This document shows, in pieces, positions 6,001 to 64,000 of a DNA stretch of 64,000 nt (position 1 is the stretch's first letter; the number at the start of each line of letters is the position of its first letter). The DNA comes from Enchytraeus crypticus (taxonomy: Eukaryota; Annelida; Clitellata; Enchytraeida; Enchytraeidae): assembly GCA_905160935.1 (NCBI GenBank), contig CAJHZI010000532.1, forward strand, positions 987,501-1,051,500, in the 5' to 3' direction. Under the pieces are notes generated by a model, which was given only the letters and a program-made list of their open reading frames with translations, searched no databases and was not told where the DNA came from. The position numbers were made by a program, and so were the translations under genes.

Positions 6001-6140
6001 GTTTGCGGGGTGAGGTTCCTCCGTCCACAGCGTCCTCAAACCTCACGACGTCCTCGTAGGGGACTCCAGCTAGCACAAACTTCTTCTGCATCATCAGAGA
6101 CTTCTCACGATCAGTCAGAGGAAGGTTGATCTTCCAGAAC
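3020..6140 (-). CDS. Plakin exon 17: acidic repeat tail and three plectin repeats, stop
   Basis: 3,121-nt terminal exon, residues about 541-1580. It opens with [15 protein letters not shown], the end of the plakin domain. A Ser/Glu/Lys-rich tail follows, in which a W..E...ET(V)V motif recurs about a dozen times. Tandem 61-residue units (183 bp) lie at about 4826-4000. Three plectin-type repeats follow at about 3790-3165, each with EAI/EAL-x3-LID or IIS and a glycine turn. The stop TAA is at 3020-3022. Plectin repeats bind intermediate filaments in other plakins; the repeat tail has no function I can assign. Confidence 0.9.
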
Positions 6141-33889: not shown

Positions 33890-34480
33890 ATCTCCATTCA
33901 ATACGAGATATCTTAAGTTTTCTATCTCCATCCAATACGAGATATCTTAAGTTTTCTATCTCCATCCAATACGAGATATCTTAAGTTTTCTATCTCCATC
34001 CAATACGAGATATCTTAAGTTTTCTATCTCCATCCAATACGAGATATCTTAAGTTTTCTATCTCCATCCAATACGAGATATCTTAAGTTTTCTATCTCCA
34101 TCCAATACGAGATATCTTAAGTTTTCTATCTCCATCCAATACGAGATATCTTAAGTTTTCTATCTCCATCCAATACGAGATATCTTAAGTTTTCTATCTC
34201 CATCCAATACGAGATATCTTAAGTTTTCTATCTCCATCCAATACGAGATATCTTAAGTTTTCTATCTCCATCCAATACGAGATATCTTAAGTTTTCTATC
34301 TCCATCCAATAGGAAATATCTAAAATTATCCATCTCCATCCAATACGAGATATCTTAAGTTTTTTTATCTCCATCCAATAGGAAATATCTACAGTTATTC
34401 ATCTCCATTCAATGTGAAATATCTAGAATTATTCATCTCCATCCCATAGAATATATTAAGACACATCCATCTCAATCCAA
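33890..34480. repeat. 34-bp minisatellite just past receptor stop codon
   Basis: About 12 near-identical 34-bp units (33890-34303) and several degenerate ones up to about 34480. Each contains the palindrome GAGATATCT. It ends about 50 bases from the stop codon, so it should be transcribed as 3' UTR. Confidence 0.9.
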
Positions 34481-34532: not shown

Positions 34533-35008
34533 TTATCGATTTCCATAGTAATCAACGGCCTCATCAATCTCCTCGTTGAATCCGATAGGTTCAGATTTAA
34601 AATGAGAATTATACGCTAACAGAATCATCAAACCGATGTTTAGGAAGAGTACTATGAAGGCCTGTATGAAGAAAATAATCCTCTCCCATATTTCCGCTAC
34701 TTGTTTGTTCACTTCCGTGTAATCTTTCACTGCTCCGTCGACATCGAGTTTATCTTCAACGTCGTTATCTTCTTCCTCATTCGAGAAGGAGGTCGGTGGT
34801 ATTACCTCATTGACTGGCAGAGATCTAAGTTCTCTGGAATATTTCGGAGGATTTTTGCTGCAAGTGACGTATTTGCCGAGAACTGTAAGCGTGGGAGTGG
34901 AAAACCACGAGGGTAATGGTCGATCGTTTAGTTCATAGACTTGTTGCAGCAGTACAGTTAGTAGAAGGGTTGCCGTAGCGTCAACGATATTGGCAAACAC
35001 GTATTTGC
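34533..35008 (-). CDS. Cys-loop receptor terminal exon: M3, cytoplasmic loop, M4
   Basis: 476 nt, acceptor gcacag. [20 protein letters not shown] is M3. A short loop of roughly 85-90 residues with an acidic stretch ([14 protein letters not shown]) follows, then an amphipathic helix with EIWER, M4 ([20 protein letters not shown]) and a short tail to TAA at 34533. Confidence 0.9.
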
Positions 35009-42463: not shown

Positions 42464-45400
42464 ATACATATATATTATACCTGTAATATATAATTAAATA
42501 TATATAATATACTGCATATATAATTTTATTATGCGAGACTGAGAGAACAGAAAGATATTCTGTAGACCTGTTAGTAATGGCCAGACTTGGTGTCCAGATA
42601 GAAGACTGCTTAATAAAAGTTTGATATATCTCACCAGGTTTTGGTTCCCCCCAGCTAATAGAGTGTTCCTTCCACATCTGTAGGAAAACGAAAGGGAGTA
42701 ACAACCGATAGCTAATAATTTATAATTAAAAAACTAATCATTTAAATAATTTAACTTAAGAAGAACATGGCGTCATATCTTGCATTTTATGCGATTGACG
42801 TATCTATGCTGGATAGATGTTTACTTCATAGTTCCTCTAGTATATATCGATTATTTTACTTATTTTTATCTTTTATAAATTCTGTCTGACTCTATTTTAT
42901 GAGTAATTCAGCTCAGATATAATTACGTCGTATAATATCAATTTGCGGACAATTTAAGACTTTTGAAGAGAGATATAAATATATAAATTGTTTTATTTTG
43001 AATGCTGTTGAAATCGACCTTTGACCAATATCTTTATCTGTACCGAACATTGGATTATTCTCTCGTATTCTATCTACTACGTTACAAGTGTTACAATTTC
43101 GCAATTGTTACAAGCCTATTCAAGTTCATCGACGCTTCTTCGTCACGCTTGAGTAATCTAGATCACCTCTCGATAACTTCGCAACTTTTAATATGAAGCG
43201 TGTTAGATCGTTAGATAATCTAGATCATAACAGCGACGGCTCGGGTCTAAACTGTGGTAAACCATCCAAAAGGGGAAGCAGAAATTAGCGCTCCAACAAA
43301 TAACAAAATTCTTAGTCTGCAAGGAGCAATGCTCCAATGGGTTGCAATGCTTCTCCTGCTCAAAGACCGCTCATCTGAGCTGCTATGGAATTTCTAAAGT
43401 TAATGTGGACATAGCCCTTCAGATTGTTGGAATACCTTCAAATACTTTTAACGCCCACCTGTCTCCTGAAGAGAACAAACAACAGTACCTAAAACGTCAA
43501 GCAAAACGTAAGCGCGCTCAGAGAACTCGCATTGTGGAGCCTAATCAGCCAAGTATTCTCACTCTCTCCGAGTTTCCTCCTGTCATCTCCCATTGACAAA
43601 CTGTCAACACTAGTATTCTAAACCCTGCGGCAACAGCATTGACGGCTCCTAGACAAGCTATACTCAGTACTTTGAACATCCAACCCAACCGCACAACTAA
43701 CGTAGGGTACCCTACTCATAACTTCGTAATTGCGAGTTCAGTGAACCCTTCACATTCTGCATCTACATCTTCGCTTCACGTCCAAAACTGACTTGATAGA
43801 AATCACTCTACGGAAATCACTAGCAGAATGGAACATATGAGTAGTCCTATCTACTCTCGTCGACACGTGATCCATTACGTAATACAACTCTTATATCTAT
43901 GATGAATACTACTATAATAAATACTTTAGAGGCAACCTGCGGATCTTTTGAATTTCGAAGATTCTTGGCAAGCTGACAAATGTTAAAGGCCTCACCTTCT
44001 GACGATAGGCCTACTAATAATCGACGAGGGACACCAGTTGAACTAATGGTACTCAAAGATAAAATGCCTGCTCTCAAACATTCAGAGTATTAATAATAAG
44101 ATCTCTGAATTAAACTTATTCAGGTCCGAATTTAATATTGACATTGCTTGCTTCTGCGAAACCTGGTTAAACGAATCAACTCTGGACAGCACGATTGTAG
44201 GTAATGATTTCTGTGTATTTAGGAGTGACCGGTCCAATAGGAAGGGTGGAGAAGTGGCAATCATCGGTAGGATAAAATCAAACTTTAAGCGTGTAGAGCT
44301 GCCTAGTCGTTATAAAAATCTTGAGATAGTGGTCACTGATGTATTATGTGGCTGTTCTAGTGATGTTATTCGCCTTGTAGTAGTATACTATCCGCCTGAT
44401 AAGGTTAATGACAAGGCTATGTGTGAACTTTTATTATCTGCTTTTATGTTTATTAACAATACCATGTTATCAGTATGTATTGTAGGAGATTTCAACCTTC
44501 CCCATATGGATTGGAAAAATCATTTCTCCCCTAACATCCAAACGTATATTGAATTTTTAAGCTTCTTTTCCTATAACTCCTTTGAACAACTAGTTGACTT
44601 CCCGACACGCGTAAATAATACGATGTATTTAATTTTCTCTGACAACCCAAATACTGTCAAAGATATAAAATCCACTACTCCCATTGGCTCGAGTGATCAA
44701 CAATCATTCAACAGTCCTTTTCAACATTGTTCCAGATATGATCCCTAACACCTATCCTTCTGTAGATTCCTTTACAACTACTATCAACAAAAACGTCACC
44801 TTTAACTCTTTTAAATACAAATGTGACCGAGCAGATTGGGATCGTGTAAAGAGATCTATATCTGAAGTAGACTGGTTCAACTTATTTTATGATTGCTCTT
44901 CTATTGACTAATGTTGGACTTCATTTAGTTCCATTCTGAATCAACTGCTCAATTCCTATATTCCAAGAAAACATTTCCGCACACCCAAACGCTCTAATAG
45001 GTTAGGAGATAAAAAAATCTAATCGGAAGATCTTTGCTAATCCCATTAAGAAGCTGTTAAATAAAAAATTAAAAGCCTGGAAATCGTTCAAAAATAATCG
45101 ATCAAATATTAGTAAATGTTACTTTAAAAAAAGTTTCAAATTATTTAAAGAAGTAAATCTTCACACAAGACGTGGAATTTAAAAAAAGCTAATAAGTAGT
45201 GGGTGTAGTAACAAATCTTTCTCTTACCAAAAGTAGAAGACGATGATCAAAAATAATATCCCCCCTCTAAAACCATATAGCATAGACGGAGCCCTGGTTT
45301 ACAGTGATTTTGATAAAGCTTCCACTTTAAATAACTATTTTAGTTCAGTCTACACTATAGATAATGATGTTATTCCTCCCTTCGAACTACCAGAAGAAGC

Positions 45401-48177
45401 ATCGCCCTCTCATTCCCTAGAACAAATACTCTTTTCAGAAGTCACAGTGTCTGAAACATAAATAAGCTAAAAATAAGGGCTCTCCTGGCTATGACGGTAT
45501 TTCTCCTACTGTTATAAAAAAAACTAAATTGTGTCATATCTAAACCGCTTTCGCTCTTATTCCATGCATTTTGGCAAAATCCCATCTGATTGGAAATACT
45601 CCATTGCAATACCCATAATTAAGAAAGGAGACAAAACTGATCCCAAAAACTATCGCCCAATATCTCTAACTTCCATTGCATGCAGAGTCATGAAAAGAAT
45701 AATCAAGGACCGATTACTTGCTTTTTTAACCAATAATAATTGATTACACGCAAAACAATATGGTTTTCTCTCTAAACGATCCACCGACTGTCAATTACTA
45801 CGTTATTTTAATGAATTATCAGAGAACATGAGTAAGTGCCTTCAAATTGATTCCGTGTATCTAAATTTTTCTAAAGCTTTTGACAGCATTGTTCACTCCA
45901 AATTATTGTTTAAACTTCAAAAATATGGCATTGGCGGTAATCTTATTATATGGCTATGGTTTTTCCTATCGGATCGATTTCAAACAGTTAAACTAAATAA
46001 TACCTACTCCAATTGGGCTTCTGTTCGCAGTGGTGTTCCCCAGGGAAGTGTATTAGGTCCTATTCTTTTTATTATTTATATCGATGATTTGTATGCCTGC
46101 AGTTCGAGCTTAAGAAACCTCTACCTTTATGCTGACGATACAAAATTATTTTCTTGTATAAATTCTATCACTGATTGTGAATTACTTCAAGAGGCTCTGG
46201 ATGCGATACACCAATGGGTTAATATGTGGCAATTGGATCTCGCTAAAAACAAAAACCGAGTAATTTCTAAAGGAAATTACCGTATAAAAAGTCTATACGG
46301 CTAAATTTCAATTACCAACTTGATTCCACCTCGTTGCGTAAAGTTGAAGAGATTACGGATCTTGGGGTGATTATTTCGCAGGATCTCTCATTTTCCACAC
46401 ATATAGAACACATGTGTAATAGAGCAAGGAAAAGCTTCCATTATTCTTAATTGTTTAAAATCAAAAGATAAGAAATTACTCTTTAGAGCGTTTACAGTCT
46501 TTGTCAGGCCCACACTGGAGTATTGTTCAAACCTCTGGTCACCTTATCGTAAATATGATATTGATTTAATCGAATCTGTCCTAAGAAGGTTTACCAAGCG
46601 ATTAAACGGCTTGAGCGACCTGCAGTTTTCCTTTAGACTAAAAGCTCTTGATGCAGATTCATTAGAGTTACGTAGACTAAAGTCTGACTTATGTACATAC
46701 TATAAAATTATGAATTATCTGATTGATCTGCCTTGGGATGAGTTTTTTCTATTAAACAAGGAATCACACATAATAATGGTGCTACCTTAAACTTAAAAAC
46801 CACTATGTATAATGCTAAGCGTTACCATTTTAGAAATAGATGTGTAAAATTTTGGAACTATTTACCGTCTAGCATTGTCATGGCTTCTTCATTAAATACT
46901 TTTAAGAAAGGACTATGCAAATCGGATCTATGTAAATTTCTAAAATCTATACAATAAATTGGATACATAGCTTTAGAGCAAATATTTTTTCGATGACAGA
47001 TGCTCCTTTCTAACTGGTATATTTTGTAACAATTATGTTTTTAAACGTTCCTATTGCAGGAGATATCTTTAACTTTATGTTTGATTTTAGTCGCTGCTTT
47101 TATACTTTACTTTTATCAGTTGTACAACCGGTACATGTTAGTGCCGTCACGGCCCTTATTACCGATCACACATATGGTTGAACTTTCTTTATGCATGCAC
47201 ATATGTTTTGTCAGAGTTGTCTATGATGTCATGAATAAATTAAATTAAATTAAATTTTGTAACTTCCCCTTTCACCCATAGTCCTCACATACATTCCATG
47301 TGCCCACATTTATACTTTTGAGGCGCATTGAATATCCTCTTGGTATATCTGTGAGGCACCCAAGGTGCCGACGGGCCGTGAGATTCTTATCACCCCTTCC
47401 CATTTAATGGGTGCACGGGACTGGGGGCGTTCATTTGTTTTGTGATACACCAATTCATACCATAACAATGCCAATTATATATTCTTAATACCAATTGATA
47501 GGGGTTATTATTACTTACTTGTTACTTGGGGTTATACTTTTGACGAGGTGGGCACCTAAGCTCATTTTACCTGGAGAGAAATTTTATTAAATACCAATTA
47601 AGCTACAAATTTTATGAAAATCTAAAATAAAATGTATAATTAGAATCAACAAGAATAAATGATTATAATGATGATGATGGTGATAGTGGTGGTAGTGGTG
47701 GTGGTTGTGCTGCAGCTGATAATGATGATTATGATGATGATGATGTTTATGATGTTGATGATGATTATAGAATGATTTGAAGCAAAGCAACTTGCCGTAG
47801 AAATTGAAACCTGTAAGTGAAGAACTTCCGAAATTTCATCCTATATGACACAAAAATACATGTAATTCTCATTAATTATTATAATAAAATAAATAACTTC
47901 ATACATACAGGGTCTGCTTTATGTACATGTACTTTACTTATTTATATTGTTTTAATAATTGACAACAATTTTGCAATGACGAAGTGGTCTAAAATACGAA
48001 TTATTCAGTTATTTCAAGTTTGCGATTTCAAAATGTACGTTTAGTCGCGTTAGGTTATCTTAAAAATAAATTAGAATATAGATAAAGTGAGAACTAGGCT
48101 ATACTCACTCTCTCTTTATCTATATTTCTCTATCTCTGCCTCTCTCTCTCTCTCTCTCTCTCGTCACTGCCTCATGG

Positions 48178-51200: not shown

Positions 51201-53384
51201 GCCGGTGAATCCCGAAGGAGTTGACTTTATTAATGGCATAGGCAGACTTATTGCAGAGCAAACCGGCGATAAGCGAGAGACATATTCTTTGGCAAAAGCT
51301 TTCCATGAATTTGCACGAATTTAATGCAGTCTGCTTCAATAATTCTTTTAAGCTGATTTATGACCTCGAGTAGCCGGGCGCCGATTCAGCACGTATTGCT
51401 TAAATCGTTTTTATCAAACCCCAGGTTCTTTACACCGGGGTAATGAAAAATAAATTAATAATAACAATAATATTAATAATAAAAAGATACTAATATTATA
51501 TAATAGAAATAGTATAATAATTATCATTATTTATGAAAAATTTAGACAGAAGATTTAGCCAAAATTATAAATAAAGCCGCATGCTATAGCTATCGATAAG
51601 TCTAATGCTAATTCCTCTGCAACTGCCTCAACATCAATACATGCATGTAGTATTAATATATAGATGAATACATATTGTGTTAAATACGTTTCATTAATAT
51701 TATTATTATCATTATCATATCAGGATCGACAGACAACTCGTGCTAGAGAATTCTGAACGCGTTGCAAACGCATGACAGAAGAAGAAGGTAAACCATAGAG
51801 CAATGAATTGCAATAGTCAAGTTTAGAATGAACTATTGAATTAGCAAGAATGATGGATGCATTTTTATCAAGAGATGACCGTATCTGTCAGATTTGACGG
51901 ATCTGGAAGATAGATGAACTACAGACAGATGAGATATGAGATTTAAAGTCAAGATTTTCATCAAATATAACACCAAGGTTTTTAGCCTTTAGTATGTCAT
52001 TTATATGCAATTTTTTCAATTAATTTTATCCTCAAAACTTTGGCAAGTGGCTGAGCGGGGGCAGCAAAGCCCCGTGGCTTCTTGGAAAGTTTTTCGGCAG
52101 ATCAGCAGGGTGCAGAGTTCAATTTTAGTGCTACGCCATCACTGACATGCTACCCAGCAAGAAACTAAAGCTGAACTTAGCCTTAGCTATTAGAACACAA
52201 ATTTACAGATTCAAGTACATATGTACATGAAGTTAGCAAATAAAAATCAACAAAACGCAGGCGTTCATCATAAAAATAACTTATAAGCTCAGAGTGTTAA
52301 TTAATAACAACAACATCGAAAACAACAACAATAACCGCAACAGCTACAACAACAGCAATAACATCAACATCATCAATAACCGCAACAACAGCAACAGCAG
52401 CAACAACAACGGCGACAACAACAACAACAGCAGCAGCAGCTGCTTTAGTAGCAGCAACAGTAGTAGTAAGCAGTAGCATTATACCTATTGTTTCTCTTAT
52501 GCCGTGTCCTTTCCTAGCGCTTTGATGTTGTCTGCAATCGAGTCACATTGGCGAATGCGGCCTCCCAGAGTAAAGAACAATTATTTGAAACATTTGATTT
52601 TATCTTTATTATTGTTGTTATTGTTGCTATCGTCGTTATTGTGGTGGTTGTCGTTGCTGTTGTCGCTGCTGTGATTGTTGTTGTTGTTTTTTGTAGTTTT
52701 TATTGTTGTTGCTATTATTATAAGGCTATTAATGTTTATTGTTATTATTGTTATCTATCGAACACTTACATGTATCCTACAAACCCGCTCAGACACTACG
52801 TTCAGATTTACTTACAAGATCTCGTATGGCTCTTAGATCTATGTTGAGGGTAATATATACTTCATCGCCAACCCCATCAACCACTCTTCTATCGCCAGTA
52901 TTACTCGCATGCAGTATCATATCCAACACTCTGCTCTCTCTGTTCCAAAACTCTTAAAAAATGCAAAACATTAAACTAAATATACGCTAATATAGTTTTA
53001 AACGTTATTAAAAGACTGTTATGCGACACAATAGGTGATAGTCGGTATTAAAGATGAACTAGCCATAGTTACCCGCAACATGGGCTAAACTAACGACATC
53101 TATCTGCCTTCTCTTATTATAGCTAGACAAAGTAAGTAATGTAATGCACTATAATGCAGTTGTGAAGAAGTTAAAGCTAAACAAATGTGATTGTTTGAAA
53201 CATTAAGATGTTGATCAGTAAAATAAGAATGAAGCATTGCAAGGGTTAGGAATTAAGCGAAAAGGAAAGTGAGACAAAGTTTCTGGTGAAAACCTTGACA
53301 TGAGTTGAAAGACAGGCATGGTGAGCCCTTATCATAAGACATTACTCTCTTGAGTAATGAATTCTTGGGAGAGACAAACAGACA

Positions 53385-53427
<43 letters not shown>

Positions 53428-56400
53428 GGACAGAACGATATATACTACAACTTGTACCTATGCTTTTAAACAAGTTATTGAACACTATAGAAGAAATGGT
53501 AGTCATGTCTTTGTAAGCGTTATTGACTTTTCTAAAGCTTTTGATTCAGTTAATTTCTGGTTGCTTTCAGTGAGTTATTGGACAGTAAACCCTCAGCTGA
53601 ATGCTTTTTAGTAACGCGTGAGCTTGCGTTTAGGTACAGCTACCAAAGCTCTATTATTAAATGGCAATCTGCAATTTCTAGTAGTTTTCAGATTTCTAAT
53701 GGCGTGCGGCAGGGGGGGGATATTGTCTCCTTTTCTGTTCTGCTTTCATATTCGTAGAGTGTTACTCAAAGTTATACAGTCTGGTATAGGCTGTTATTTT
53801 TCATGAACAGATTCATTAACGTCTTAGCGTATGCAGATGATATGGTTTTGTTAGCTCCCTCTTGGCGTGCTCTGCAACACTTATTGTATGTGCTAGAGTT
53901 TGCCACTAGGGAAATCAACATGATGTGCAACACAAAAAAACTGTTTGTATGATATTTAATCCGCTTATCATATGTAAATCTATCTGTGCTAACTTTCCGA
54001 ATTTTGTTCCTGAAGGCCATGAGCTTTCATTTGTATTCAGCTTTAGGTATCTCGGTCATATCATACAGAATGATCTTCATGATGATTTGGACATTAATCG
54101 TAAGATAAGGAATTTATTCTATCATACTAATGCTCTTAAAAGAAAATTTGGCTTATGTTCAATTTCTGTTATATTGAAATTATTTAGAAGTTATTGTTCT
54201 TGCTTCTATGATTTAGCCTTGTGGAAGGTTTTTAAATTAGCTGCTCTTAGTCGTATGAAGTCCTGCTATATAAAATGCGTTAAATCATTTTTTAACATCC
54301 CAAAATATAGTAGTGTCACTGAAATGTTTTTATCTTCTGGGATACCGGTATTTGACACAGTGTTCTGTAACTCTCGGTTTAGTTTGTTAAAACGCGTCAA
54401 AGAGTCTCATACAGCTCCTATTTCCTCCATGTCAAGGTTCTGTCTAAGCTAATCACTATTATTATTTTTATCTTTTTTATCTTTTCATATTGGACTACGT
54501 AATTCTGTCTTTTTCTCTTGTTTCTGTCATTGTATCGTGCAAGGTCTTAGGGAGTGTTGTCTGAAATAAACGAGTGATGATGATGATGATGATAGAAAAA
54601 AGAGAAAAATTCGTACCTGAGCTTTTACGTGTATAAGACTATATTAGGATTGACCTTTTAAAAATCCCTAACACGATGCGATCATTTTGTCATGAGCAAA
54701 CAGAGTTAAATTCTCGTAGAGATTGCAGCCAAAATTAGTCCAAATTTAGTTTCCTAACTAGTCGATGTATAATTTTTATTGTATTTTTAGCATAGACCAT
54801 TTTATGGTCGGCAACCCCTGTAGAATAAAAAGTTACAAAATTCAAACAATTGATACGGATGCCCTCACAAATTTAGCAATTTGCATAGTTGTAACGTAAG
54901 TTGTTTCAATGAACTTTTCTGACATTTTTTTTCATGCATTCAAATTGCGAAATTTAAAATTTTTCGTTCACCCTAATACATACAACTTTATTTCACCAAA
55001 ACGTATGGCAGCATAACTACAATACATGCTCAATATAAAGTACACTATACAAAGTGGCATCATGTTTCGCGAAAAGGGCAAATAGACTAATGCTGTTGAG
55101 ACTTTCAATGAGGAGTACAGATGATAAATTGTCTTCTATAATACTAGGAGAGCCGATGAATAGGTTTGATAAAGAGGCTGATTTCTACAAATTCTTATTG
55201 TCGTAATAACTGAACATTTTACCTATATTATATTATGTGTACGTAAAATATCCTTCTCCATTCAATCTATAAGAGTTCATAATGTAACTTATTATGTAAC
55301 GTAGGAAGTTTTATATATATATATATAGATTCTATATCCGCGACAAAGTCACACAAATAAGAAAATATTTTCTGAAAGATTAGTTTGTTTAACTGCTGGT
55401 AATATATTGCTGTTTGTGTCATTTATTATTCATTAAATGTTAATTGTCAGTCAAAATAAGCATTTCTTAATTAATACATCCTTGATAATCTGTAAATGAA
55501 CTATTAACCTTTTCAGTAGTAATGTACTAGTATGAACTAGGGTGGCTTTGAACTTTAGTCCCCAAAGTGCTTTAGTGCGCCACGCGCTGACCTAGGTAAT
55601 CCGCCCACATACATGCTTTCCCGTACCAATTAGCCTGAAGTATCAGTGGATGTATGCGTCATGTGAGGTCTTAAGTGGATGTTACTAATTAGCCCAAGGA
55701 ATCATTGGAGCGATTGTCCTCACTCAGCAGCTCATGTGACCACTTAAGCAGACACCAGATGTTACTAATTAACAAGAAATATCACTTAGTATAACTCTAC
55801 ATTGTCCTAAAATTGGCCTGTAGCTATTGCACACAATAAAAGACACACCCTCATAATTTTAAACTTGGTAAATACACATCCTCAAAATTCTCTAGTTGAT
55901 AAATTCAAGTCTTCATAATTTTAAACATGTTAAAAACGTATCCTCTTAATTTGAAACCTGATTTAAACACACCCTCGTAAGTTTAAACTTGACTGAAACA
56001 CGCCTACATAATTATAATCTTGATAAAAAAACAACACATCTACATAATTCTCCAGTTGATAAATTCACGTCTTCATAATTTTAAACGTTTTAAAAATGTG
56101 TCCTCTTAATTTGAAACTTGATAAAAACACGTCATCATACCTTTGTAATTGATATAAACAAGTCCACATAATTATTTTAGTTTGTTTAAACACACCCTAA
56201 CATGATCCCCCACATGATCCTAAGTGGTGCTATTATTTCTGTAGTTATAACCGCATAGGTGTGAAAAATATATTTGATTTAATAGCTGTTTCCTTCTCCC
56301 TATCAGCCTAATGGCAGGTCTACGACACCTACATTTTCAATCCTAACCCTTCTTTCTGCTCAAAGCATATATCTTGCGCATCCTATTAGGTGTATTTACT

Positions 56401-56582
56401 GTCCTTTACATGCATGCATTCTTAAATATATCTTTCTAAGTATATAATGCCAGACATTTAGCACCAAAATCTTAAATATGCAACCCTCGTTTCTTCTCAA
56501 TCTATGAATTTTTCACATCCTAGCCTACTAGAGTATTTTTCTCACTTGACATGCGCAGTTTCTTAAATTTCTCTATTTCCTC

Positions 56583-56631
<49 letters not shown>

Positions 56632-59600
56632 TTTTTTTTCATGCATCCTAGTACAGCCTTTTCCTCCCAGTAGATGCATACTTTCATAATTTTTCTACAT
56701 TTCTTGGCTATACCTACCTGCCTAGTAGGTATCCATTGCACTTAACTCTTAAATCCCAACACTCTTCCTATTCAATATACGTATCTTGCGCATCCTAGTA
56801 AGCTTATTCCTGCCTTATACATGCTTTATTTTGTAAAATTTTTCTCCTTAAGTGTATAATGCCAGGCCCTTAATATCTAAATCTTCAATCCTCATCCCTC
56901 TTTTTTTCATCAATATATGTATTTTACATTTCCTACTAGCATACTTTCTACACTATACTTGTACACTTTTAAACATTTTTGTCTCTTAGCTCTCTAACGG
57001 CACCTGCATAACACATCAATCATCTCTCCTAAACCCTACTGTATTCTTTTAATTTCCTCTTTTAGCAAATTATCTCAGAACTTGCTTTCATCCTAAATGC
57101 ACACCTTTTTCTTTATTTAATCTCTTAACCCATTATCATTGTTGAAGCGTTCTTTAATTGCCTACTTCCATTTGGTATGCCATTCTTCTAAATTGCAACA
57201 TTGCTTTGACTTTTCTCCTATGTTTTCATGCCAAAACTTAGCTATCTTCTTTTCAATAACCACGTTTCGTAAACAATTCGACCTCTCTCTTACTCTCTCT
57301 CTCTCCCTCTCTCTCCCTCCATGCTTCTCATAGTTAAAGCAAATATTTAATTACTATTTTAGTTAGTTTTAACTTAGTTTACTTACCTTTCTAATTTCTA
57401 AAGTTTAGCTAAAAAAATAGTGACAACAACTTTTTAATCTAGCCAAATTTGTTTACAATAGTCTAGTCAATGCAAAAATGACTTTAATGTGAAAGCAATC
57501 TTTAATCAGATAATCGTATTATCGATTTAATGGTTTTAAATGCACCCTGCAACTCTATTTATATTTTGATGATAACAAAGTTCTCAACTAATTTCAGTAC
57601 TCATATAATTTGGTAAGTTAACTCACTATCTCTTAGTGCACTGCCAATTGGCAGGTCCACGACATAGGCCTATAACTCATCAACATATTTCTATCCTCTG
57701 CCTTTCTATTCTAACCAAACCACAGTTATACTACAATTACAAATCTGGGTACAAATTGACTTAATTTATTAAATTGATTGACGTATACAAATTGATCCAT
57801 TGGGGGTTTTACCCTCTCCAGAAGGAACTTAGCCCCCTCCCCAAATAGTGTAAAAGAGGGTGTCAGGTTTTGACCGAAAATGACTGAAATCCGCTGTACG
57901 AACTCCTCCAGATAAATTCTTATATATCTTCAGATATTTATAGCATTTAGCCAGTAATTCTAGATACTAGATTGATAGGTGATGCATTTGACAATAGTGA
58001 TTCTAATAATCTGACATATTGCCCCGTGTTGTGCTCGGGTGTAGTTGGACCACTGCAGAATAGGGCAACCGCAAACAATCTGCTGCTTGTAGGAAAAAGG
58101 CGACTGAGGCAGGAGCTGAGGATGGCTAGAGGGGACCCGCCTCACAATGAAATATTTTCGAGCAGGATTAAATGATAATTAATTCATCTAACAGAGAAAG
58201 GTAACGGGAAATCACCTCAGAAGCCATACCTTTCCCAAGCTATAGGTTACATATGGTATGGATAAGACATAGACTTTGTGAAGGGATTAACTTGTTTATC
58301 TAATGAGTGTTTTTATGGAGAGAGAAAATATACTTTGAGTATGAATATGTACCTTGAACATGCCACTTGGCAGTGCACTGAAGAGAGAAGATATTTTCAG
58401 TAATAATTGTTAAATATTAGCAATTAGTGTCATAAACAAAGAGTCTATTTTAATGTAGTGTTTAATACTTTAGATGCAATTGTGTACGAAAGAAATGCTA
58501 AATACTAAAGCAGTTAAGTACAACTATTTTTAGCTAAATATATAGTAGAAGTAGTATAGTTTAACGACTTCTTTAGTTATCAAAATAGTTAAATTTTAAC
58601 AACTTCTTTAGTTAAAATAACAGTGTATAAAGTATTAACTACGTTTAAAGATAGTCTATATGCCCATCACCGAACATGATTGTATTAAAATATAGAATGA
58701 AAGTTAATATCAAGAAAGCCAAAGTGATGAGACTGTATTGAACATTAGGAAGAGTCAAAATAGAAATAGAACGAAGTTGAATTTAGAACAGGTAAAGAGT
58801 TTCAGATATTTAGTGCACACATTAACGGAAGACGGGAAATGTGAAAAAGAAATTAAATGTAGAATTGGTCAAAAAACAGAAGCCTTCAATATTAGGAAAG
58901 AATTACTAACACAAAGTTTGAGGAAAGCCACGAAGAAAAGTTCGATAGGACTTTAGTGTGGACCACGCTACTGTAAGGCTGTGAAACATTGACGTTAAGA
59001 AAGGAGGATAATAGAAAACTGGAATCTTTTGTAATGTGTCTGTCAAAGTTTGATTCGATATATATTTAGTATGTACTTGTATTTGTGATTGCATTTTTAG
59101 TAAACTATTTAATGATACTGCTGGATAAGTAAAGTTAAGATTTAAAGTATTGAGTTTTATTAAAGTGAGATCCTACGCGGTAGCTATACTACGGCAAGTG
59201 ACCAATGAGGGCATGCCTAAACAGTAACTAGGGGAGATCAAAGATGGAAGAGTGACAACACGGACGTAAAACGTGCCAAGTTGAAAAAAGATTTAGGAGA
59301 TTTGAGGAATCTCAGTTGTTGACGAATTCAGAAGGAATTCGAAGGGTTCGGTTATTCGAACTAATTTGTAGTCCATCGAACAGTGGATGAGAAGAGAGTG
59401 ATCAGTAGAGGATCGAAGAAGGAAGAGAGTTCCATCGAAATATTCTAACCTAGGGATTATATTAGATGGAATCCTAGTAGGCGAATAGTCGAGAGGAAAC
59501 TAAAGTAAAGTGTAAGAAATTGAGCTAGAGAGCGTACTAGTAATTTAAGTGTCAAAAGCAGTTGTATGTTATGTAAAATACTTACTTTTTGCGATATTTA

Positions 59601-60236
59601 AAGTGAACAGTGATTCACTAGAAAGTATAGTTTTATGTTATATAAAATTCGCTTACACGTGTTATTTGAAATCGTTTAATTTTCGTTCTACTATATATCC
59701 GTGTATTATTTTATTTATTTTCGTATTAAATTAATATTTATTTTAATGCAGTCGTTGAAGTTATCCATCAATTATTGGGATGTCTAGATTCAGTCGAAAA
59801 TCGAGGACAGATAAAATTCTAAAATAATTATAAGAGGCATTTTATTAGGAATTTAAGCCCTGTAACATTTAATTTCAGGTCATCATTTTACCAAAGACAA
59901 ATTAGTAGAATCAGATTACTGACAGTGTCTATGAAGAAAAATGAAGAGGATCAAATGTCCTGACAAAATTACGAATGAAGAAGTGCTAAATAGGGTTGGC
60001 AACAAATAGACAATTGATAGATATCATCAGGCATAGAAAGATGAACTGTGTGGGTCATATATAGGGACTGGTTTACCAAAACAGGTAATTAAAGGAAGGA
60101 AATTGGTTAGAGGAAGACTGATACTTGGGATGATGAATGACTGGATAACTATTTCATTCGTTGATATGAAAAGAGAGACAGAGGATAAAAATACTTGGAA
60201 GAGTCACATGCCACGGACTTGTCAATAGGCAGTGAA

Positions 60237-60296
<60 letters not shown>

Positions 60297-62595
60297 GAGG
60301 AGAGAGAGAATATGATAATAATATTAACAAAGATTTTACGTCCGTTTCCTCATCTAGGGATGATGTCAGAGACGTCCCCAACAGCACACATTACTACAGA
60401 TCAATTCACCCAGTCCAATCTGCAAAAGAAATGTGCTGAGGAGTAGAAACGTCCTAACCGAAAGCGGTTCCAGTGATCAAAAATCGTCAGGGGTAGATCG
60501 ATTATGTCTTCGGTGGGAAAAGGTAAGTCTTAAGCTTGCTAGAGAAAGTTGAAAGGGAAGAACATAGATAGAACATAGATAGGATAGAACTGATTGGCTG
60601 ACTGGTTAATGGATTGAGTAAAGTTTACCACAATTATTTTCGTCCTCAAAGTCTCTACAGTTGTTGTATCCATCACACAGCTCCCAACTTCTGATACAGA
60701 GACCAGGAGTAGAGTTACAATGTAGCACTTCAAAAGCCGTTGCTCCGTAGTTCTCCAGGATATCGCAACTCGTGAAATTTGCTTAGCACAAAAGCATGCG
60801 ATTGAGTTTAATTTGTGTGCATAATCATGAGTGATTTGAGATATGATAAATACTAATTATGCATAATTAAAACTATGCATGGACATATATGTTATTATAC
60901 TATAATTATATTTTTTAAACATAATTGTACAATCAGAAGTATGCCTACAATCTATAAGGATGCCAACTACACTGAAATAGTTTCAAGCTTCTACAATTTT
61001 AATAATAAATAACCTGAAGGAGTAGGATGGGGAAGGGGTTAAAATTTAAATTGAAGACATTTGAAGCAATTACAGTGCAGTGCGCTCCAGATTGTGCACA
61101 GTTATCTTTATAACTGTGAAAATATGTATAGGCTTACTTACAGTATAATTATATAGACGTGATACAGAGACGAGCAGTAGACGCGCTGTAAGATGTAAGC
61201 ACGATGTAAGATGTAAGCGCGCTGTAAGATGTAAGCACACTGTAAGATGTACGCGCGCTGTAAGGTGTAAGCATTAGTTTCTAGAATATGGTCTAAATCC
61301 AAATGATTCAAATAGTCAAATAAAATCTAAGATATGGAATAAGTTTGAGAATATTTTACATGCTAGTAATTAAAATTATTTTTATTATTTTGAAATTAGG
61401 ATAATTAATGTGGTGGAAGCAAAAAGTAAGAGTCCCTCTGACGAACTAACTTACTGTACTAGACCGAGAAGGTTCCGATTATTCGGGTTCAGATCTACAA
61501 CACGAAGGGTAGTCTTACTGCCAGGGGTCCTACCTACGAGATGTGAGGCTATGTGGGTGACTGTTTGAGAAGACTATTCAATAACGAACAAAGCATAAAA
61601 TGTCATAAATACAATTATGTTTTCTGTTGCCTATCGCGGTTTTATAATGCACGAATAAACTATATTTAAGCTCGAAATTGTTACACAACGTTCATGATCG
61701 ATACATAGTTACCTTGTTACCTTGTTACCGTTCCATCAAATGGAATAGCAAAGAGCAAGAACAAGAGAAAAGTAAGAAACTAACTGGAGACTTAATAGAC
61801 ACAACTGAAGACGTAAAGGAGTAAAGGAGTAGAGGGGTAAATTACCAAAAAACCAAAAGAACACTAAAGACCACTAAAGACCACTAAAGACCCAACAGCA
61901 CACTAAAGACCCGGACTGCTGAAAGGACCCAGCTTATATTGTCCGAAAGATACACATACATTCCAACATACAAACAGACACACTAAGAGAGAGACATTCA
62001 CACGATACTAAAGGCAATCGTTCTATGGAAACCTGTTACCAAAATGGTTGTCCCACTTAACCAGATATATCCGTAGCAACGAATTGGCTTCCGAATCAAT
62101 CATAATAATAATAATAATAATAACACACATTATTATAGTGAAATAATCAACTACGCTGATATCTTTCACTTTTAATACAACATGCTTAAACCGTGAGGCA
62201 ATTTAGGCCATTTTCCGTGTATCCAGTCCATTGAATGTCCGAGATTTTACTCTCAGATCAGCGCGACTGGGATTCGAAACCACGAGGTTTCAACTCAGCT
62301 CAGGGTCTGTCATTTTAAACTTCATGACGTTATCAACACCCCTAACCATTGCGCTATTGAGACATTCAATCATACTCATACTCCAAAGATGATCCAAACA
62401 AACAACAACCACTTTGTAAACTGACTCTCAGGTACGTTTCCATAACTTGAATGTTGCATGATAGTAACAAGGCTAGTCATGAATGTGTATATGTGTATAC
62501 ATATGTGTATGTATGTATATATGTACATATATATGAACATGTATATGAATTTATGTGCATGAATATGTGTATGTATTTATATGTGTAGGTATATA

Positions 62596-62652
<57 letters not shown>

Positions 62653-63628
62653 GGACTGGGCATTAAAAAAATCCCCCTAACACAATTACAATAGCTTAGC
62701 CAATTATTGATACTGTGCCTTGAAATTTGAAGTTTATCTTGTGGAGGAATTTTGCTTCAAGCTGACCAAATTTTGTAAATATATCTTTAAAGGAACCGGA
62801 GTTATACAAGTTTTGCGAAAAATTGATTATTTTCATTTAACACGCAACGTAAAACGTTCATTAGAATCAATTTCCTTTTGAAAATGTGCTGGCCTTGAAA
62901 AGGGCCGTTAGATGATTACGACTCTGATTTTGTGCTATAATGTGTGCTCGAAATGAATGCCCTGGGTTTTAATGCCTACCAGAAGTCTTTTCTTACAGAT
63001 AGAATTGCGCTGTCAATGGACTATTGTGGTAGGTCTTTCCAGACCTCTTGAAGAACAGCCTTTAATTCCATTGTGTTTCTGCGTTTGGGCTTGAAAGCAC
63101 GATACTTTTCCAACATGAGTCTCCAGACAAAAAATCACGCGGATTAAAATCTGGAGAATTAGAAGGCCAATCATCCACTTCTTTTATGAAATCTGGGCTG
63201 TATTGTACAAGAAAGTATTGCGCAAGACTTGAAGTATGAGCCGGCGCGCCGTCCTGTTGAAAAATGAAATCATTTGACTTTAACTTGTTCCAGTCTTCAA
63301 TCAGTTTCGTCAGAATAGGGTTAGTGTAATACATTGTAGCACAATATCAGAGGGGTATTCATCTAACGGCCCATTTCAGGGCCAGCACATTTTCAAAAAG
63401 GAATTGATTCTAATTGACGTTTTACGTTGCGTGTTAAATAAAAATCAATTTTTTCGCAAAACTTGGATAAGTACGGTTCCTTTAAAAATATATTTACAAA
63501 ATTTGGTCAGCTTGTAGCAAATTTTCTCCACAAGAGAACCTTCAAATTGCACGGCGAAATATAAATAATTGGCTAAGCTATCGTAATTTTGCTAGAGGGA
63601 TACTTTTCTAATGCGCAGCGTGTATATA

Positions 63629-63692
<64 letters not shown>

Positions 63693-64000
63693 GTCGCACT
63701 TTTTGCTATTGAAAGATATTTACATGTTACTTGTATTTATTCACTTGACAGCTTTGCAATTTTGTCTTTTAAATTTTTCTACTATTGAAATGGTGAAATA
63801 AAATAAAATAAATCTAGGTTGTTTCACGATTTAGACAGAATTTAGGTCCAGCGATACGGCTGTGTAAGAAAAATTAAAACTTAACATATTTGATTAACAG
63901 TCATTGATATACCACAATAAGTTTCGTCGTCCCAATTTCTACAATCATTGAATCTGTCGCATAGTAAGTCGGTTGAGATACACCTAGAAGCCGTGTTGTT
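34533..64000 (-). CDS. LDLa-containing nicotinic-type Cys-loop receptor subunit (partial, 5' end outside window)
   Basis: Recognised exons on the minus strand: 63913-64000 (runs off the window), 60629-60781, 52816-52952, 42568-42677, 36690-36969, 35980-36229, 34533-35008. One small phase 0-0 exon (45 bp expected) between 52.8 and 42.7 kb was not found. Order: at least two LDL-receptor class A modules, ligand-binding domain with a 13-residue Cys-loop, M1-M2-M3, short cytoplasmic loop, M4, stop. Such subunits assemble as pentameric ligand-gated channels in the plasma membrane. The vicinal cysteines of loop C and the loop B tryptophan are missing, so it is not a canonical alpha subunit. Phase 1 boundaries join LDLa exons to the binding-domain exon without strain. 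Joining across 18 kb of intron is an inference; separate genes remain possible. Confidence 0.7.
35575..35705. repeat. GAGACCAAGACC degenerate tandem array
   Basis: Mixed 6-bp and ~24-bp units (actcgagaccaagaccagac), in a receptor intron. Confidence 0.8.
35980..36229 (-). CDS. Cys-loop receptor exon: loop C, M1, M2
   Basis: 250 nt. [20 protein letters not shown] then [12 protein letters not shown] (M1) and [20 protein letters not shown] (M2). Loop C has no Cys-Cys pair. M2 keeps Glu at -1' (a cation-selectivity feature) but has Met at 9' instead of Leu and Asp at 14'. Ends SDYFPLL plus one base; donor gtaggt. Confidence 0.9.
36690..36969 (-). CDS. Cys-loop receptor exon: beta strands and Cys-loop
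   Basis: 280 nt. Begins by completing Ser (..[10 protein letters not shown]), then [15 protein letters not shown], a perfect 13-residue Cys-loop with FPFD. The following GSWTY-type loop B reads EISLLFY, so the aromatic-box tryptophan is absent. Ends GTKSL in phase 0, donor gtaagt. Confidence 0.9.
37040..37255 (+). repeat. Diverged SINE-A plus second 3'-end fragment
   Basis: agctgagtcggtagcttgta ... aggaaactgacgttaaact, then a second hairpin end with (GATT)n. Confidence 0.5.
37585..40192 (+). mobile_element. Non-LTR retrotransposon, degenerate (CR1/jockey-like)
   Basis: 5'-truncated. 37589-37894 holds the end of an apurinic-type endonuclease (SDHSAIFC). The reverse transcriptase runs about 38200-39200 ([39 protein letters not shown]) with several frameshifts. 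The catalytic YADD reads YAYD. The thumb/C-terminal part 39320-39727 contains [20 protein letters not shown]. The 3' end has the hairpin, gacgttaaacc and (TTA)n at 40190. Confidence 0.85.
40200..41330. other. Receptor intron
   Basis: No gene recognised. 40640-40900 may be an old inverted LINE fragment but the match is too weak to assign. Confidence 0.4.
41335..41560. repeat. ~90-bp duplication, 2.3 units
   Basis: aaacaatgaaactatacccta-like start with accactgccattattaacat in the middle; C-rich segment differs in length. Confidence 0.75.
41560..41627. mobile_element. End of a related hAT-like element
   Basis: Ends cccccctggatccgccactg, the same terminal inverted repeat as 25249-25517. I did not find a matching left end or duplication. 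Confidence 0.45.
42384..42475. repeat. (AT)n tract beside receptor exon
   Basis: About 90 bases of TA repeats about 90 bases from the 42.57-kb donor. Confidence 0.95.
42568..42677 (-). CDS. Cys-loop receptor exon: loop D to loop A
   Basis: 110 nt, the same length as the equivalent exon in nicotinic receptor genes. [14 protein letters not shown]... [12 protein letters not shown] corresponds to the W...W and IW.PDI..YN segments. Loop A lacks the usual tyrosine. Acceptor ttttcctacag; donor gtctac is weak but the next exon completes AGC in phase. Confidence 0.8.
43200..47258 (+). mobile_element. Non-LTR retrotransposon with endonuclease and RT, broken ORFs
   Basis: Nearly full length, inside the receptor intron. 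43310-43596 resembles an ORF1 with a PHD-like finger ([14 protein letters not shown]), typical of CR1-like elements. Endonuclease 44095-44740: [18 protein letters not shown], but SDQ in place of SDH. RT 45240-46300: [31 protein letters not shown], intact YADD. Several frameshifts. The 3' tail is (TAAAT)n. Confidence 0.85.
48250..51452 (+). mobile_element. Non-LTR retrotransposon with C-terminal restriction-like endonuclease signature
   Basis: Flanked on both sides by AAT-rich tracts. 48539-48991 encodes an N-terminal region. RT 49178-49795: [40 protein letters not shown]. Then 49987-50778, where a one-base loss breaks the YLDD catalytic motif near 49896. C-terminal 50813-51020: [17 protein letters not shown] zinc knuckle, then CPDGMTLVP...WDVTV, a PD...D pattern as in R2/NeSL-type endonucleases. 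Ends tttacaccggggtaat. Confidence 0.75.
51700..52005 (-). mobile_element. Fragment of the 37.6-kb LINE family, inverted
   Basis: Minus strand translates [18 protein letters not shown] ... [20 protein letters not shown], nearly matching 39390-39650. Confidence 0.75.
52035..52192 (+). repeat. Degenerate SINE-A-like element
   Basis: Ends with gctgaacttagccttagc after a gacatg hairpin-like segment; strongly diverged. Confidence 0.4.
52300..52720. repeat. (CAA/CAG)n followed by (GTT)n
   Basis: 52300-52465 is AAC/CAG-rich and 52605-52720 is GTT-rich, so the two halves are rough complements about 140 bases apart, directly next to a receptor exon. Confidence 0.85.
52816..52952 (-). CDS. Cys-loop receptor ligand-binding domain, first exon
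   Basis: 137 nt, beginning with two bases that finish a codon and ending in phase 0 at donor gtaagt. Reads [20 protein letters not shown] then [22 protein letters not shown], the N-terminal helix and first beta strands of a nicotinic-type binding domain. Known nicotinic genes have a phase-1 exon of about 140 bp here, followed by 45 bp and 110 bp exons. Acceptor is a T-run plus aag; a second AG two bases on would give a phase-0 start. Confidence 0.75.
53440..54592 (+). mobile_element. 5'-truncated non-LTR retrotransposon with (GAT)n tail
   Basis: RT fragments: [43 protein letters not shown]. The C-terminal domain 53925-54452 contains [20 protein letters not shown]. Two or three frameshifts. 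Ends aataaacgag then (TGA)n. It starts right after a (GA)n tract. Confidence 0.85.
54600..55830. other. Receptor intron
   Basis: AT-rich, no coding or repeat family recognised apart from a short AT run at 55312. Confidence 0.5.
55840..56205. repeat. Degenerate tandem array (~35 bp)
   Basis: Recurring cacaccctcataattttaaa and cttgataaa segments about ten times. Confidence 0.6.
56300..57100. repeat. Degenerate long tandem duplication, T-rich
   Basis: 56370-56530 and 56775-56930 share gtatcttgcgcatcctagta-like and gtataatgccaggcccttaa-like segments in the same order; an (AT)n run lies between. Confidence 0.6.
57622..57690 (-). mobile_element. RTE-like LINE 3' tip
   Basis: ctcttagtgcactgccaatt and ggcaggtccacgacat, the inverted terminal segment. 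Shorter tips lie at 9028-9060 and 56295-56335. Confidence 0.55.
58020..58395 (+). repeat. SINE-B copy, longest 5' end
   Basis: Begins ccccgtgttgtgctcgggt and ends ttggcagtgcactgaagaga. Body matches the copies at 1-380, 12105-12360 and 30330-30590 (the latter two inverted). Confidence 0.75.
58660..59040 (+). mobile_element. RTE-like LINE fragment, 5' part
   Basis: [11 protein letters not shown], then [35 protein letters not shown] and [20 protein letters not shown], typical of RTE-type RT C-terminal regions. Interrupted at 59041 by a probable solo LTR. Confidence 0.75.
59041..59924. mobile_element. Probable solo LTR (884 bp)
   Basis: Starts TGTCAAAG and ends TTACTGACA (TG...CA ends, TGTCA/TGACA inverted). 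Flanked by GTGTC at 59036-59040 and 59925-59929, a 5-bp target duplication. Removing it rejoins the RTE-like reading at the conserved ESF.M...RKMKRIK segment. Confidence 0.6.
59925..60310 (+). mobile_element. RTE-like LINE fragment, 3' part with (GA)n tail
   Basis: [20 protein letters not shown], then [20 protein letters not shown] followed by CQ and stop. The 3' end taggcagtgaattaagagag runs into (GA)n at 60241-60308. Confidence 0.8.
60315..60440 (-). repeat. LINE 3'-end fragment
   Basis: Inverted copy extending into the segment tactacagatcaattcaccc also present at the 40.1-kb LINE end. Confidence 0.65.
60629..60781 (-). CDS. LDL-receptor class A exon (complete)
   Basis: 153 nt, phase 1-1, 51 codons. 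Six cysteines: SC, HC, GLC, ELC, NNC, NNC. Contains [17 protein letters not shown], typical of LDLa; the Asp before the fifth Cys is Asn. The spacing between Cys 1 and 2 (15 residues) is longer than usual. Acceptor gtgctaag, donor gtaaac. Its first two bases complete a codon left by the 63.9-kb exon. Confidence 0.8.
60790..62120. other. Intron between LDLa exons
   Basis: Nothing recognised apart from the 18-bp array and a short actaaagacc tandem at 61860-61900. Confidence 0.5.
61175..61275. repeat. 18-bp minisatellite, five units
   Basis: Units of gcgctgtaagatgtaagc with small variation. Confidence 0.85.
62125..62372 (-). repeat. SINE-C (tRNA-like) copy
   Basis: Second copy; A-box tagcgcaatggttag and B-box ggtttcgaatccc on the minus strand. 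An ATT microsatellite sits at its 3' side. Confidence 0.7.
62652..63622 (-). mobile_element. Tc1/mariner-like element, 971 bp, decayed
   Basis: Same family and size as 28306-29273 with the transposase fragment on the minus strand (63062-63334: [28 protein letters not shown]). Flanked by TA within long (TA)n tracts. Confidence 0.85.
63913..64000 (-). CDS. LDL-receptor class A exon (partial)
   Basis: Reads [18 protein letters not shown] then DDETYC, ending one base into a codon at donor gtatat. The C-I..LC-D...DC...DDE..C pattern is the C-terminal half of an LDLa module, with the DC and DDE calcium-site acids present and the middle Asp replaced by Asn. Extends past the window. Confidence 0.8.

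What the first reader, a model, noticed from the sequence alone, without database searches (positions are those of the whole stretch)
52816..64000. LDL-receptor class A modules apparently fused to a nicotinic-type Cys-loop receptor
Two LDLa exons (63.9 and 60.6 kb) lie on the same strand upstream of a ligand-binding-domain exon. The complete LDLa exon is phase 1-1, and the binding-domain exon begins in phase 1, so all three splice in frame (...[15 protein letters not shown]). Nicotinic genes have an ancestral phase-1 intron between the signal-peptide exon and this ~140-bp exon, and the 110-bp exon downstream is also conserved in length. This looks like exon shuffling of phase 1-1 modules into that intron, giving a channel with extracellular lipoprotein-receptor modules. 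I cannot exclude that such architectures are already in domain databases.
Basis: partly seen in the sequence, partly recalled or inferred. Interest (0 to 1): 0.92.

Follow-up and report, generated by a model that had tools for sequence, protein, structure and literature searches.

The report
Ion channels wearing lipoprotein-receptor modules
This animal genome carries a whole family of genes that encode nerve-receptor-type ion channels with a string of lipoprotein-receptor modules built onto their outer end, a protein design for which we found no published description.

Summary
The finding holds and is larger than reported. The window gene (minus strand) joins 13 exons into a 717-residue open frame with every splice phase fitting: signal-peptide candidate, six LDLa modules, then a nicotinic-type receptor with the classic 137/45/110-nt binding-domain exons, Cys-loop and membrane helices. 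Four of the six LDLa exons lie beyond the window; a fifth straddles its end.

The fusion recurs. Outside this contig, 110 of 113 genome matches to the LDLa half lie on eight contigs that also carry receptor paralogs. Of 38 Cys-loop exon matches, 21 have same-strand LDLa upstream within 60 kb. For 98 of 108 LDLa matches the nearest receptor exon ahead is on the same strand. One paralog has a 532-bp intron between last LDLa and binding domain, without a plausible signal exon. Against it, LDLa exons (dN/dS 0.27) and receptor exons (0.37) are both constrained.

The acetylcholine-site residues are gone and the pore looks cation-selective. I infer a non-cholinergic channel whose LDLa arm captures or anchors a ligand. 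No transcripts were available; the species is unknown. New variant of a known kind.

The parts
63913..64000 (-). LDLa 5 exon, 3' part (whole exon 64035-63913, 123 nt, phase 1-1). Upstream of it, beyond the window (extended numbering, minus strand): LDLa 4 75430-75308, LDLa 3 79874-79752, LDLa 2 81747-81616, LDLa 1 86009-85887, signal-peptide candidate exon 88423-88345 (C439:1075845-1075923)
   Evidence: the signal exon rests on a hydropathy and donor scan only, no signal-peptide predictor was available
60629..60781 (-). LDLa 6 exon, 153 nt, phase 1-1
52816..52952 (-). first ligand-binding-domain exon, 137 nt, phase 1 to 0
47796..47840 (-). 45-nt binding-domain exon [15 protein letters not shown], phase 0-0, followed by a GC donor
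42568..42677 (-). 110-nt binding-domain exon, phase 0 to 2
36690..36969 (-). Cys-loop exon, 280 nt (C-x13-C)
   Evidence: PF02931 genome match 2.6e-11
35980..36229 (-). TM1-TM2 exon, 250 nt
34533..35008 (-). TM3, cytoplasmic loop, TM4 and stop, 476 nt
   Evidence: TM4 read by eye

Best explanation
The locus is one gene for a subunit of a pentameric (Cys-loop, nicotinic-type) channel that carries six LDLa modules in front of its ligand-binding domain; the genome holds a family of about twenty such genes. SHOWN at genome level: exon order, phases, open frame, recurrence in paralogs, purifying selection on both halves. INFERRED: the LDLa modules fold as usual (six cysteines each; the calcium-site acidic pattern is complete in 4 of 6) and stand as five flexible arms above the pentamer. 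INFERRED: the channel is not gated by acetylcholine, because the loop A, B and D aromatics and the loop C cysteine pair are gone, and it passes cations, because the -1' glutamate is kept with no proline-alanine insertion. MOST LIKELY MECHANISM: the arms capture a ligand (a lipid-carrying particle, a hydrophobic molecule on a carrier, or a basic protein) or a matrix partner and hold it at the receptor, whose altered pocket then opens a depolarising channel; tandem expansion diversified the specificities, as in chemoreceptor families.
For: 13 exons join into 717 aa with one terminal stop and matching phases. Pfam on the joined protein: LBD 1.4e-29, LDLa 1.7e-23 with 4 stretches at E up to 0.001, Neur_chan_memb 8e-9; six LDLa stretches are matched when the limit is E 10. 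Closest solved chains are nicotinic subunits, an alpha-3 fusion construct first at 2.4e-36. LDLa-type matches: 110 of 113 outside C439 (counted) and 128 of 132 outside C439 with a paralog-based query (counted by eye) lie on the same eight receptor-bearing contigs. 21 of 38 non-window Cys-loop exon matches, all on those contigs, have same-strand upstream LDLa within 60 kb. The nearest receptor exon ahead of an LDLa match is on its strand in 98 of 108 cases. C235A: identical LDLa, Cys-loop and TM1-2 exon lengths, dN/dS 0.27 (95% 0.16-0.41, 215 codons) for LDLa and 0.37 (0.27-0.50, 368 codons) for receptor exons; 532-bp LDLa-to-LBD intron. Binding-site and pore residues read by eye from the alignment. 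Precedent for nicotinic-derived receptors of hydrophobic molecules that do not bind acetylcholine: octopus chemotactile receptors (PMC11526382, passages).
Against: No transcript, protein or expression evidence. The signal-peptide exon was chosen as the best-scoring candidate of its stretch; other stretches hold candidates of similar score, and its copy at 118.6 kb is a segmental duplicate, so not independent support. Two splice donors of the window gene are weak (gttcgt, gtctac) and one is GC. 19 of 108 LDLa matches have no same-strand receptor exon ahead within 60 kb, among them whole LDLa groups at C723:10637-22535 and C223:320794-325939, and module order by best match is not perfect (C172, C722). 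17 of 38 Cys-loop exon matches, all on other contigs, have no detected LDLa upstream although some relatives there reach 53% identity in the membrane exon. C235A keeps the Asp before cysteine 5 in only 2 of 6 modules. Ligand capture by the arm is untested, and the LDLa domain of LEV-10, a nicotinic-receptor clustering protein, is dispensable for clustering (PMC9083331, passages).
Confidence: 0.6

Rival explanations
1. Two neighbouring genes: a secreted or membrane LDLa protein gene upstream, and a separate receptor gene with its own first exon between 60.6 and 52.95 kb.
For: A weak in-frame signal-like candidate, 55063-54997, exists in that interval; no RNA is available; in the window gene the two halves are 7.7 kb apart; some LDLa groups elsewhere have no receptor exon detected ahead.
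Against: The interval's candidate density (2 rows in 7.6 kb) is below that of the other stretches scanned (10 in 25, 18 in 30, 23 in 44 kb). Paralogs repeat the arrangement on eight other contigs in both orientations, and C235A leaves 532 bp with no plausible signal exon. All phases match.
Confidence: 0.04
2. The fusion is real but the LDLa arm serves anchoring (matrix, synaptic organiser or clustering partner) and not ligand capture: a trans-acting auxiliary function of the LEV-10/NETO/LRP4 kind moved into the subunit.
For: LDLa-bearing proteins act as partners of ionotropic receptors: LEV-10 and NETO have LDLa plus CUB (PMC9083331, passages); LRP4, an agrin-MuSK co-receptor at the neuromuscular junction, appears in abstracts listed.
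Against: In LEV-10 the CUB domains, not LDLa, matter for clustering. The orthosteric site has changed too and the family is expanded in clusters, which suggests ligand diversification.
Confidence: 0.3
3. A working fusion family exists, but the window copy is decaying.
For: Weak donors at LDLa 1 and the 110-nt exon, a GC donor, and long introns holding transposon-like frames. A duplicate of its first two exons (118.6 and 116.0 kb) has lost its first donor GT.
Against: The whole 717-residue frame is open, and each exon compared has dN/dS below 0.5 against C235A, though a pairwise ratio cannot date a recent loss.
Confidence: 0.12

Closest known systems
Nicotinic-type Cys-loop receptors (best solved match: nAChR alpha-3 construct, PDB 6pv7)
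   Same: Binding domain, C-x13-C Cys-loop, membrane domain, 137/45/110-nt exon series (that nicotinic genes have such a series is recalled), -1' glutamate
   Different: Six LDLa modules in front; no loop C cysteine pair; loop A, B and D aromatics replaced; M at 9' and D at 14' of TM2
Octopus/squid chemotactile receptors (PMC11526382 and PMC10338036, passages)
   Same: Nicotinic-derived, lineage-expanded, signature ligand motifs lost, cation channels (predicted here)
   Different: No LDLa array is mentioned in the passages read; no phylogenetic test was made here; ligand here unknown
Expanded molluscan and annelid nAChRs with odd domain structures (PMC6896357: abstract, sections 5 and 9, passages)
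   Same: Large clustered expansion; 41 of 1371 tabulated genes carry other functional domains (my sums of Table 1)
   Different: Named additions are dynamin and GAIN; LDL does not occur in the main text (supplements not seen); the expanded molluscan genes tend to be intronless, these are intron-rich
LEV-10, NETO auxiliary proteins (PMC9083331, passages)
   Same: Extracellular LDLa module working with an ionotropic receptor
   Different: Separate single-pass proteins with CUB domains; here LDLa is in the subunit itself and no CUB was found
LRP/LDLR proteins
   Same: Tandem LDLa modules
   Different: Here they end in a pentameric channel instead of beta-propeller/EGF and a single membrane span (comparison recalled)

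Membership tests
Cys-loop pentameric receptor subunit | Neur_chan_LBD and Neur_chan_memb domains | tested here: met
   1.4e-29 and 8e-9, both above cut-off; memb profile matched over its first half only (positions 1-122 of 233)
Cys-loop pentameric receptor subunit | Two cysteines 13 residues apart with FPFD | tested here: met
   [15 protein letters not shown] at 36863; the two cysteines invariant in 5 of 5 aligned family members
Cys-loop pentameric receptor subunit | Pentamer forming a gated pore | not testable with these tools
   sequence only
nAChR alpha subunit | Adjacent loop C cysteines | tested here: not met
   no CC in the joined receptor
Acetylcholine-binding nAChR | Aromatic box: loop A Tyr, loop B Trp, loop D Trp | tested here: not met
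   replaced by T, L and S in the alignment to alpha-3 (read by eye)
Cation-selective Cys-loop receptor | Glu at -1' and no Pro-Ala before TM2 | tested here: met
   [10 protein letters not shown] against [10 protein letters not shown]; selectivity itself not measured
LDLa module | Six cysteines in LDLa spacing, Pfam PF00057 | tested here: met
   six cysteines invariant in 12 of 12 modules aligned (6 window gene, 6 C235A); PF00057 1.7e-23
LDLa module | Complete acidic calcium-site pattern | tested here: inconclusive
   Asp after cysteine 4 and the closing D-E invariant in 12 of 12; Asp before cysteine 5 kept in 4 of 6 window modules and 2 of 6 C235A modules
LEV-10/NETO auxiliary proteins | CUB domains | tested here: not met
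   no CUB match in the listing at E up to 10
Chemotactile receptors | Orthology to cephalopod CR clade and gating by hydrophobic ligands | not tested
   no CR sequence was fetched; function not testable here

The most novel reading that the evidence does not exclude
A new class of chemoreceptor or lipid-particle-gated channel: expanded nicotinic-derived cation channels whose LDLa arms bind lipoprotein-like or other carriers and deliver the cargo to a remodelled, non-cholinergic pocket, so that an ion channel is gated directly by what a lipoprotein receptor would bind.
Probability: 0.25. Interest if true: 0.92.

Novelty: new variant of a known kind. Interest (0 to 1): 0.72.

Why it matters
Extra domains on these receptors are rare: in the 14-species table of PMC6896357, 41 of 1371 nAChR genes carry other functional domains (my sums), and LDL is not mentioned in its main text. 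A family of about twenty genes in which endocytic-receptor modules sit on the channel subunit itself would be a natural experiment in building auxiliary or capture domains into an ion channel. It makes concrete tests possible: does the arm gate, tune or place the channel, and can a ligand-gated channel read lipoprotein-like cargo?

Tried and rejected
Separate-gene reading: tested by a signal-exon scan and by paralogs; rejected. Chance neighbourhood of two common gene kinds: the 150 scored general LDLa matches (of 819 candidates) and the 150 scored LBD matches (of 405) share ten contigs (C179, C321, C330, C390, C395, C421, C440, C454, C554, C767); inspected by eye, none has an LDLa upstream of an LBD on its strand within 60 kb (nearest such: C321, about 170 kb). 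Both lists are capped.

Second LDLa-receptor copy between 86 and 116 kb: only a 5' duplication was found (signal plus LDLa 1, the two longest pieces 82% and 80% identical, first donor GT lost); no second receptor there. Scans for the 45-nt exon failed because they asked for a Trp or a GT donor; reading the sequence found it before a GC donor. A first joining of the LDLa exons used a wrong donor for LDLa 2 and ran into stops; corrected.

Database relatives: the receptor search gave 1 protein (Adineta ricciae, 25%) and a 5-row alignment gave 5 proteins, none with LDLa in its listed Pfam domains. The tool's word filter misses distant relatives and eukaryote coverage seems patchy, so absence there is weak evidence. 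Species: a neighbouring SLC52 gene's organism-named hits were Capitella (38%), Helobdella (36%), Lepeophtheirus (32%) and Phallusia (30%), below unnamed proteins; lineage left open.

Literature, search listings only unless said: LDLa + Cys-loop receptor 0 papers; Neur_chan_LBD + Ldl_recept_a 0; LDL receptor class A + pentameric ligand-gated ion channel 0; LDLa + acetylcholine receptor 36, 20 listed, 13 of them by title or abstract start on LRP4, myasthenia or the neuromuscular junction and none on a fusion by title, 16 not seen; broader sets gave 7, 473 of which the 20 listed hold no 'LDLa', 8 of which 7 listed and unread, and 0. The library is open-access papers only.

Structure prediction was not run, because a spliced protein is not letter-for-letter in the DNA. 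No tree was built, and sequences of the LDLa-less relatives were not fetched.

Full report
OBSERVATION. The window is C439:987501-1051500 of a 524-Mb, 802-contig genome. On the minus strand the stated LDLa exons are real: single-exon Pfam matches of 7.8e-7 (60.7 kb) and 2e-6 (64.0 kb, cut by the window end). The stated binding-domain exon starts at 52952 in phase 1 and the 110-nt exon is 42677-42568. I then found the missing 45-nt exon, 47840-47796, before a GC donor, the Cys-loop exon 36969-36690, the TM1-2 exon 36229-35980 and the TM3-4 exon 35008-34533 with the stop.

WHOLE GENE. Neighbouring letters show five further LDLa exons upstream on the same strand and none on the other. Six of the seven LDLa exons join the receptor in phase: LDLa 1 86009-85887, LDLa 2 81747-81616, LDLa 3 79874-79752, LDLa 4 75430-75308, LDLa 5 64035-63913, LDLa 6 60781-60629 (extended window numbering). 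The seventh (116.0 kb) is part of a duplicate of the 5' end whose first donor GT is lost. A signal-peptide-like exon, 88423-88345, ends in the required phase 1. It was the best-scoring candidate of the 86-116 kb stretch, but candidates of similar score occur elsewhere, so this exon is the least certain part. The 13 exons give 717 residues with one terminal stop; each LDLa exon is phase 1-1 with a length divisible by three. Pfam finds the binding domain at 1.4e-29, LDLa at 1.7e-23 (4 stretches at E up to 0.001) and the membrane domain at 8e-9; at E up to 10 six LDLa stretches are matched.

ONE GENE OR TWO. There is no RNA here, so I used the rest of the genome. A search with the receptor half returned 100 matches; a search with signal, LDLa 1-6 and the first binding-domain exon returned 122, nine on this contig. 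Of the other 113 (two of them binding-domain exons), 110 lie on eight contigs (C172, C207, C223, C235, C402, C425, C722, C723) that also hold receptor exons; the three exceptions are on C450, C460 and C614. Of 38 Cys-loop matches outside the window contig, 21 have a same-strand LDLa exon upstream within 60 kb; these 21 are all those on the eight contigs, and the other 17 lie on other contigs. A neighbour's LDLa can count in a cluster, but at the 15 loci with an LDLa 6 match it is 4-15 kb from the Cys-loop exon. Seen from the LDLa side, 89 of 108 LDLa matches have a same-strand receptor exon ahead within 60 kb and 96 of 108 within 100 kb; the nearest receptor exon ahead is same-strand for 98, opposite for 6, and absent for 4. 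Order is broadly LDLa 1 to 6, binding domain, Cys-loop, TM1-2, TM3-4, also in inverted genes (C722, C723). It is not perfect: modules are called by best match, C172 and C722 show local departures, and the LDLa groups at C723:10637-22535 and C223:320794-325939 have no same-strand receptor exon detected ahead within 100 kb. A second query built on the C235A modules gave 139 matches: 7 on this contig, 128 on the same eight contigs and 4 elsewhere (C450, C460 twice, C765, counted by eye). Some loci may be allelic copies: several LDLa matches on C223 and C172 have equal scores. Match lists are capped by the tool.

THE DECISIVE PARALOG. In C235A the exon lengths equal those of the window gene for the five LDLa exons compared (123, 123, 123, 123, 153) and for the Cys-loop and TM1-2 exons; the first binding-domain and last exons differ (143 against 137, 461 against 476). 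The intron between LDLa 6 and the binding domain is 532 bp. It holds no ATG frame of 12 or more codons with a GT donor in the needed phase; two short frames (12 and 13 codons) are followed by GC (GCAAAG, GCGTGC), and no ATG frame in the intron exceeds a nine-residue hydropathy of 2.1. A separate receptor gene starting there is very unlikely. dN/dS between the two genes is 0.27 for LDLa (215 codons, bootstrap 0.16-0.41) and 0.37 for receptor exons (368 codons, 0.27-0.50); the 45- and 110-nt exons and LDLa 2 were not compared. In the window's own interval a weak in-frame candidate (55063-54997) remains; such candidates are no denser there than elsewhere.

RECEPTOR HALF. The best solved relatives are nicotinic subunits. 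In the alignment to alpha-3, read by eye, the loop D Trp, loop A Tyr and loop B Trp are S, T and L, and the loop C cysteine pair is missing, so acetylcholine binding of the usual kind is unlikely. TM2 reads [22 protein letters not shown] against [22 protein letters not shown]: the -1' Glu is kept without Pro-Ala (cation type, recalled rule), 9' is M, 14' is D. That D is invariant in the five family members aligned.

LDLa HALF. Six cysteines, the Asp after cysteine 4 and the closing D-E are invariant in the 12 modules aligned. The Asp before cysteine 5 is kept in LDLa 1, 2, 4 and 5, M in 3 and N in 6; in C235A it is kept in 2 of 6. Calcium and ligand binding are inferred from the known fold.

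MECHANISM. Shown: gene structure, recurrence, selection. Inferred: the arms stand on top of the pentamer (the LDLa array is N-terminal to the binding domain), catch a ligand or partner, and the altered pocket gates a cation pore. Lost acetylcholine motifs plus clustered expansion resemble the octopus chemotactile receptors, which respond to hydrophobic molecules (PMC11526382, passages; PMC10338036, passages). Against a simple clustering role, the LDLa domain of LEV-10 is dispensable (PMC9083331, passages). I put capture or delivery of ligand somewhat above anchoring; neither is tested.

KNOWN OR NEW. In PMC6896357 (abstract, outline, sections 5 and 9, passages) 41 of 1371 nAChR genes in 14 species carry other domains (my sums), with dynamin and GAIN named; LDL does not occur in its main text, and its supplements were not seen. 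Paper searches listed no LDLa-nicotinic fusion, with unlisted rows unseen. Protein searches found no LDLa-bearing relative, with weak power. The architecture may still sit unnoticed in domain databases that I could not query. Verdict: a real, apparently undescribed architecture, hence a new variant of a known kind.

Noticed in passing
window 3023-6166, minus strand: Open frame of 1048 residues with plectin repeats (Pfam PF00681, 2.4e-13).
   Followed up: partly
window about 44.0-46.9 kb and 48.5-51.2 kb, plus strand: Reverse-transcriptase-like open frames (non-LTR retroelements by look, recalled motifs) inside the receptor gene's introns.
   Followed up: no
window 63062-63346 (minus) and 28600-28917 (plus): Two mariner-like transposase remnants by look, one between LDLa 5 and LDLa 6.
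   Followed up: no
window about 34000-34450: Minisatellite-like repeat of about 34 bases shortly behind the receptor stop codon.
   Followed up: no
C439, extended window numbering 113.5-120.5 kb: Duplicate of the gene's first two exons with surrounding DNA (longest pieces 82% and 80% identical); its first donor GT is TT.
   Followed up: yes
C103, C378, C384, C516, C655: Receptor relatives with up to 53% identity in the TM1-2 exon and no LDLa match on these contigs in the capped lists: possible LDLa-less sister genes, useful to date the fusion.
   Followed up: partly
window 35980-36229: TM2 of the family carries an invariant Asp at 14' (5 of 5 aligned members), unusual inside a pore helix.
   Followed up: no
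L015 1058-2443, minus strand: SLC52 riboflavin-transporter frame (4.2e-107) just beyond the window's low end.
   Followed up: partly
C460:652629-653381: A 287-residue open frame matching several LDLa modules, with no receptor match on that contig.
   Followed up: no
C723:10637-22535 (+) and C223:320794-325939 (+): LDLa groups of this family with no same-strand receptor exon detected ahead within 100 kb: missed exons, contig ends, decayed genes or LDLa-only genes.
   Followed up: no
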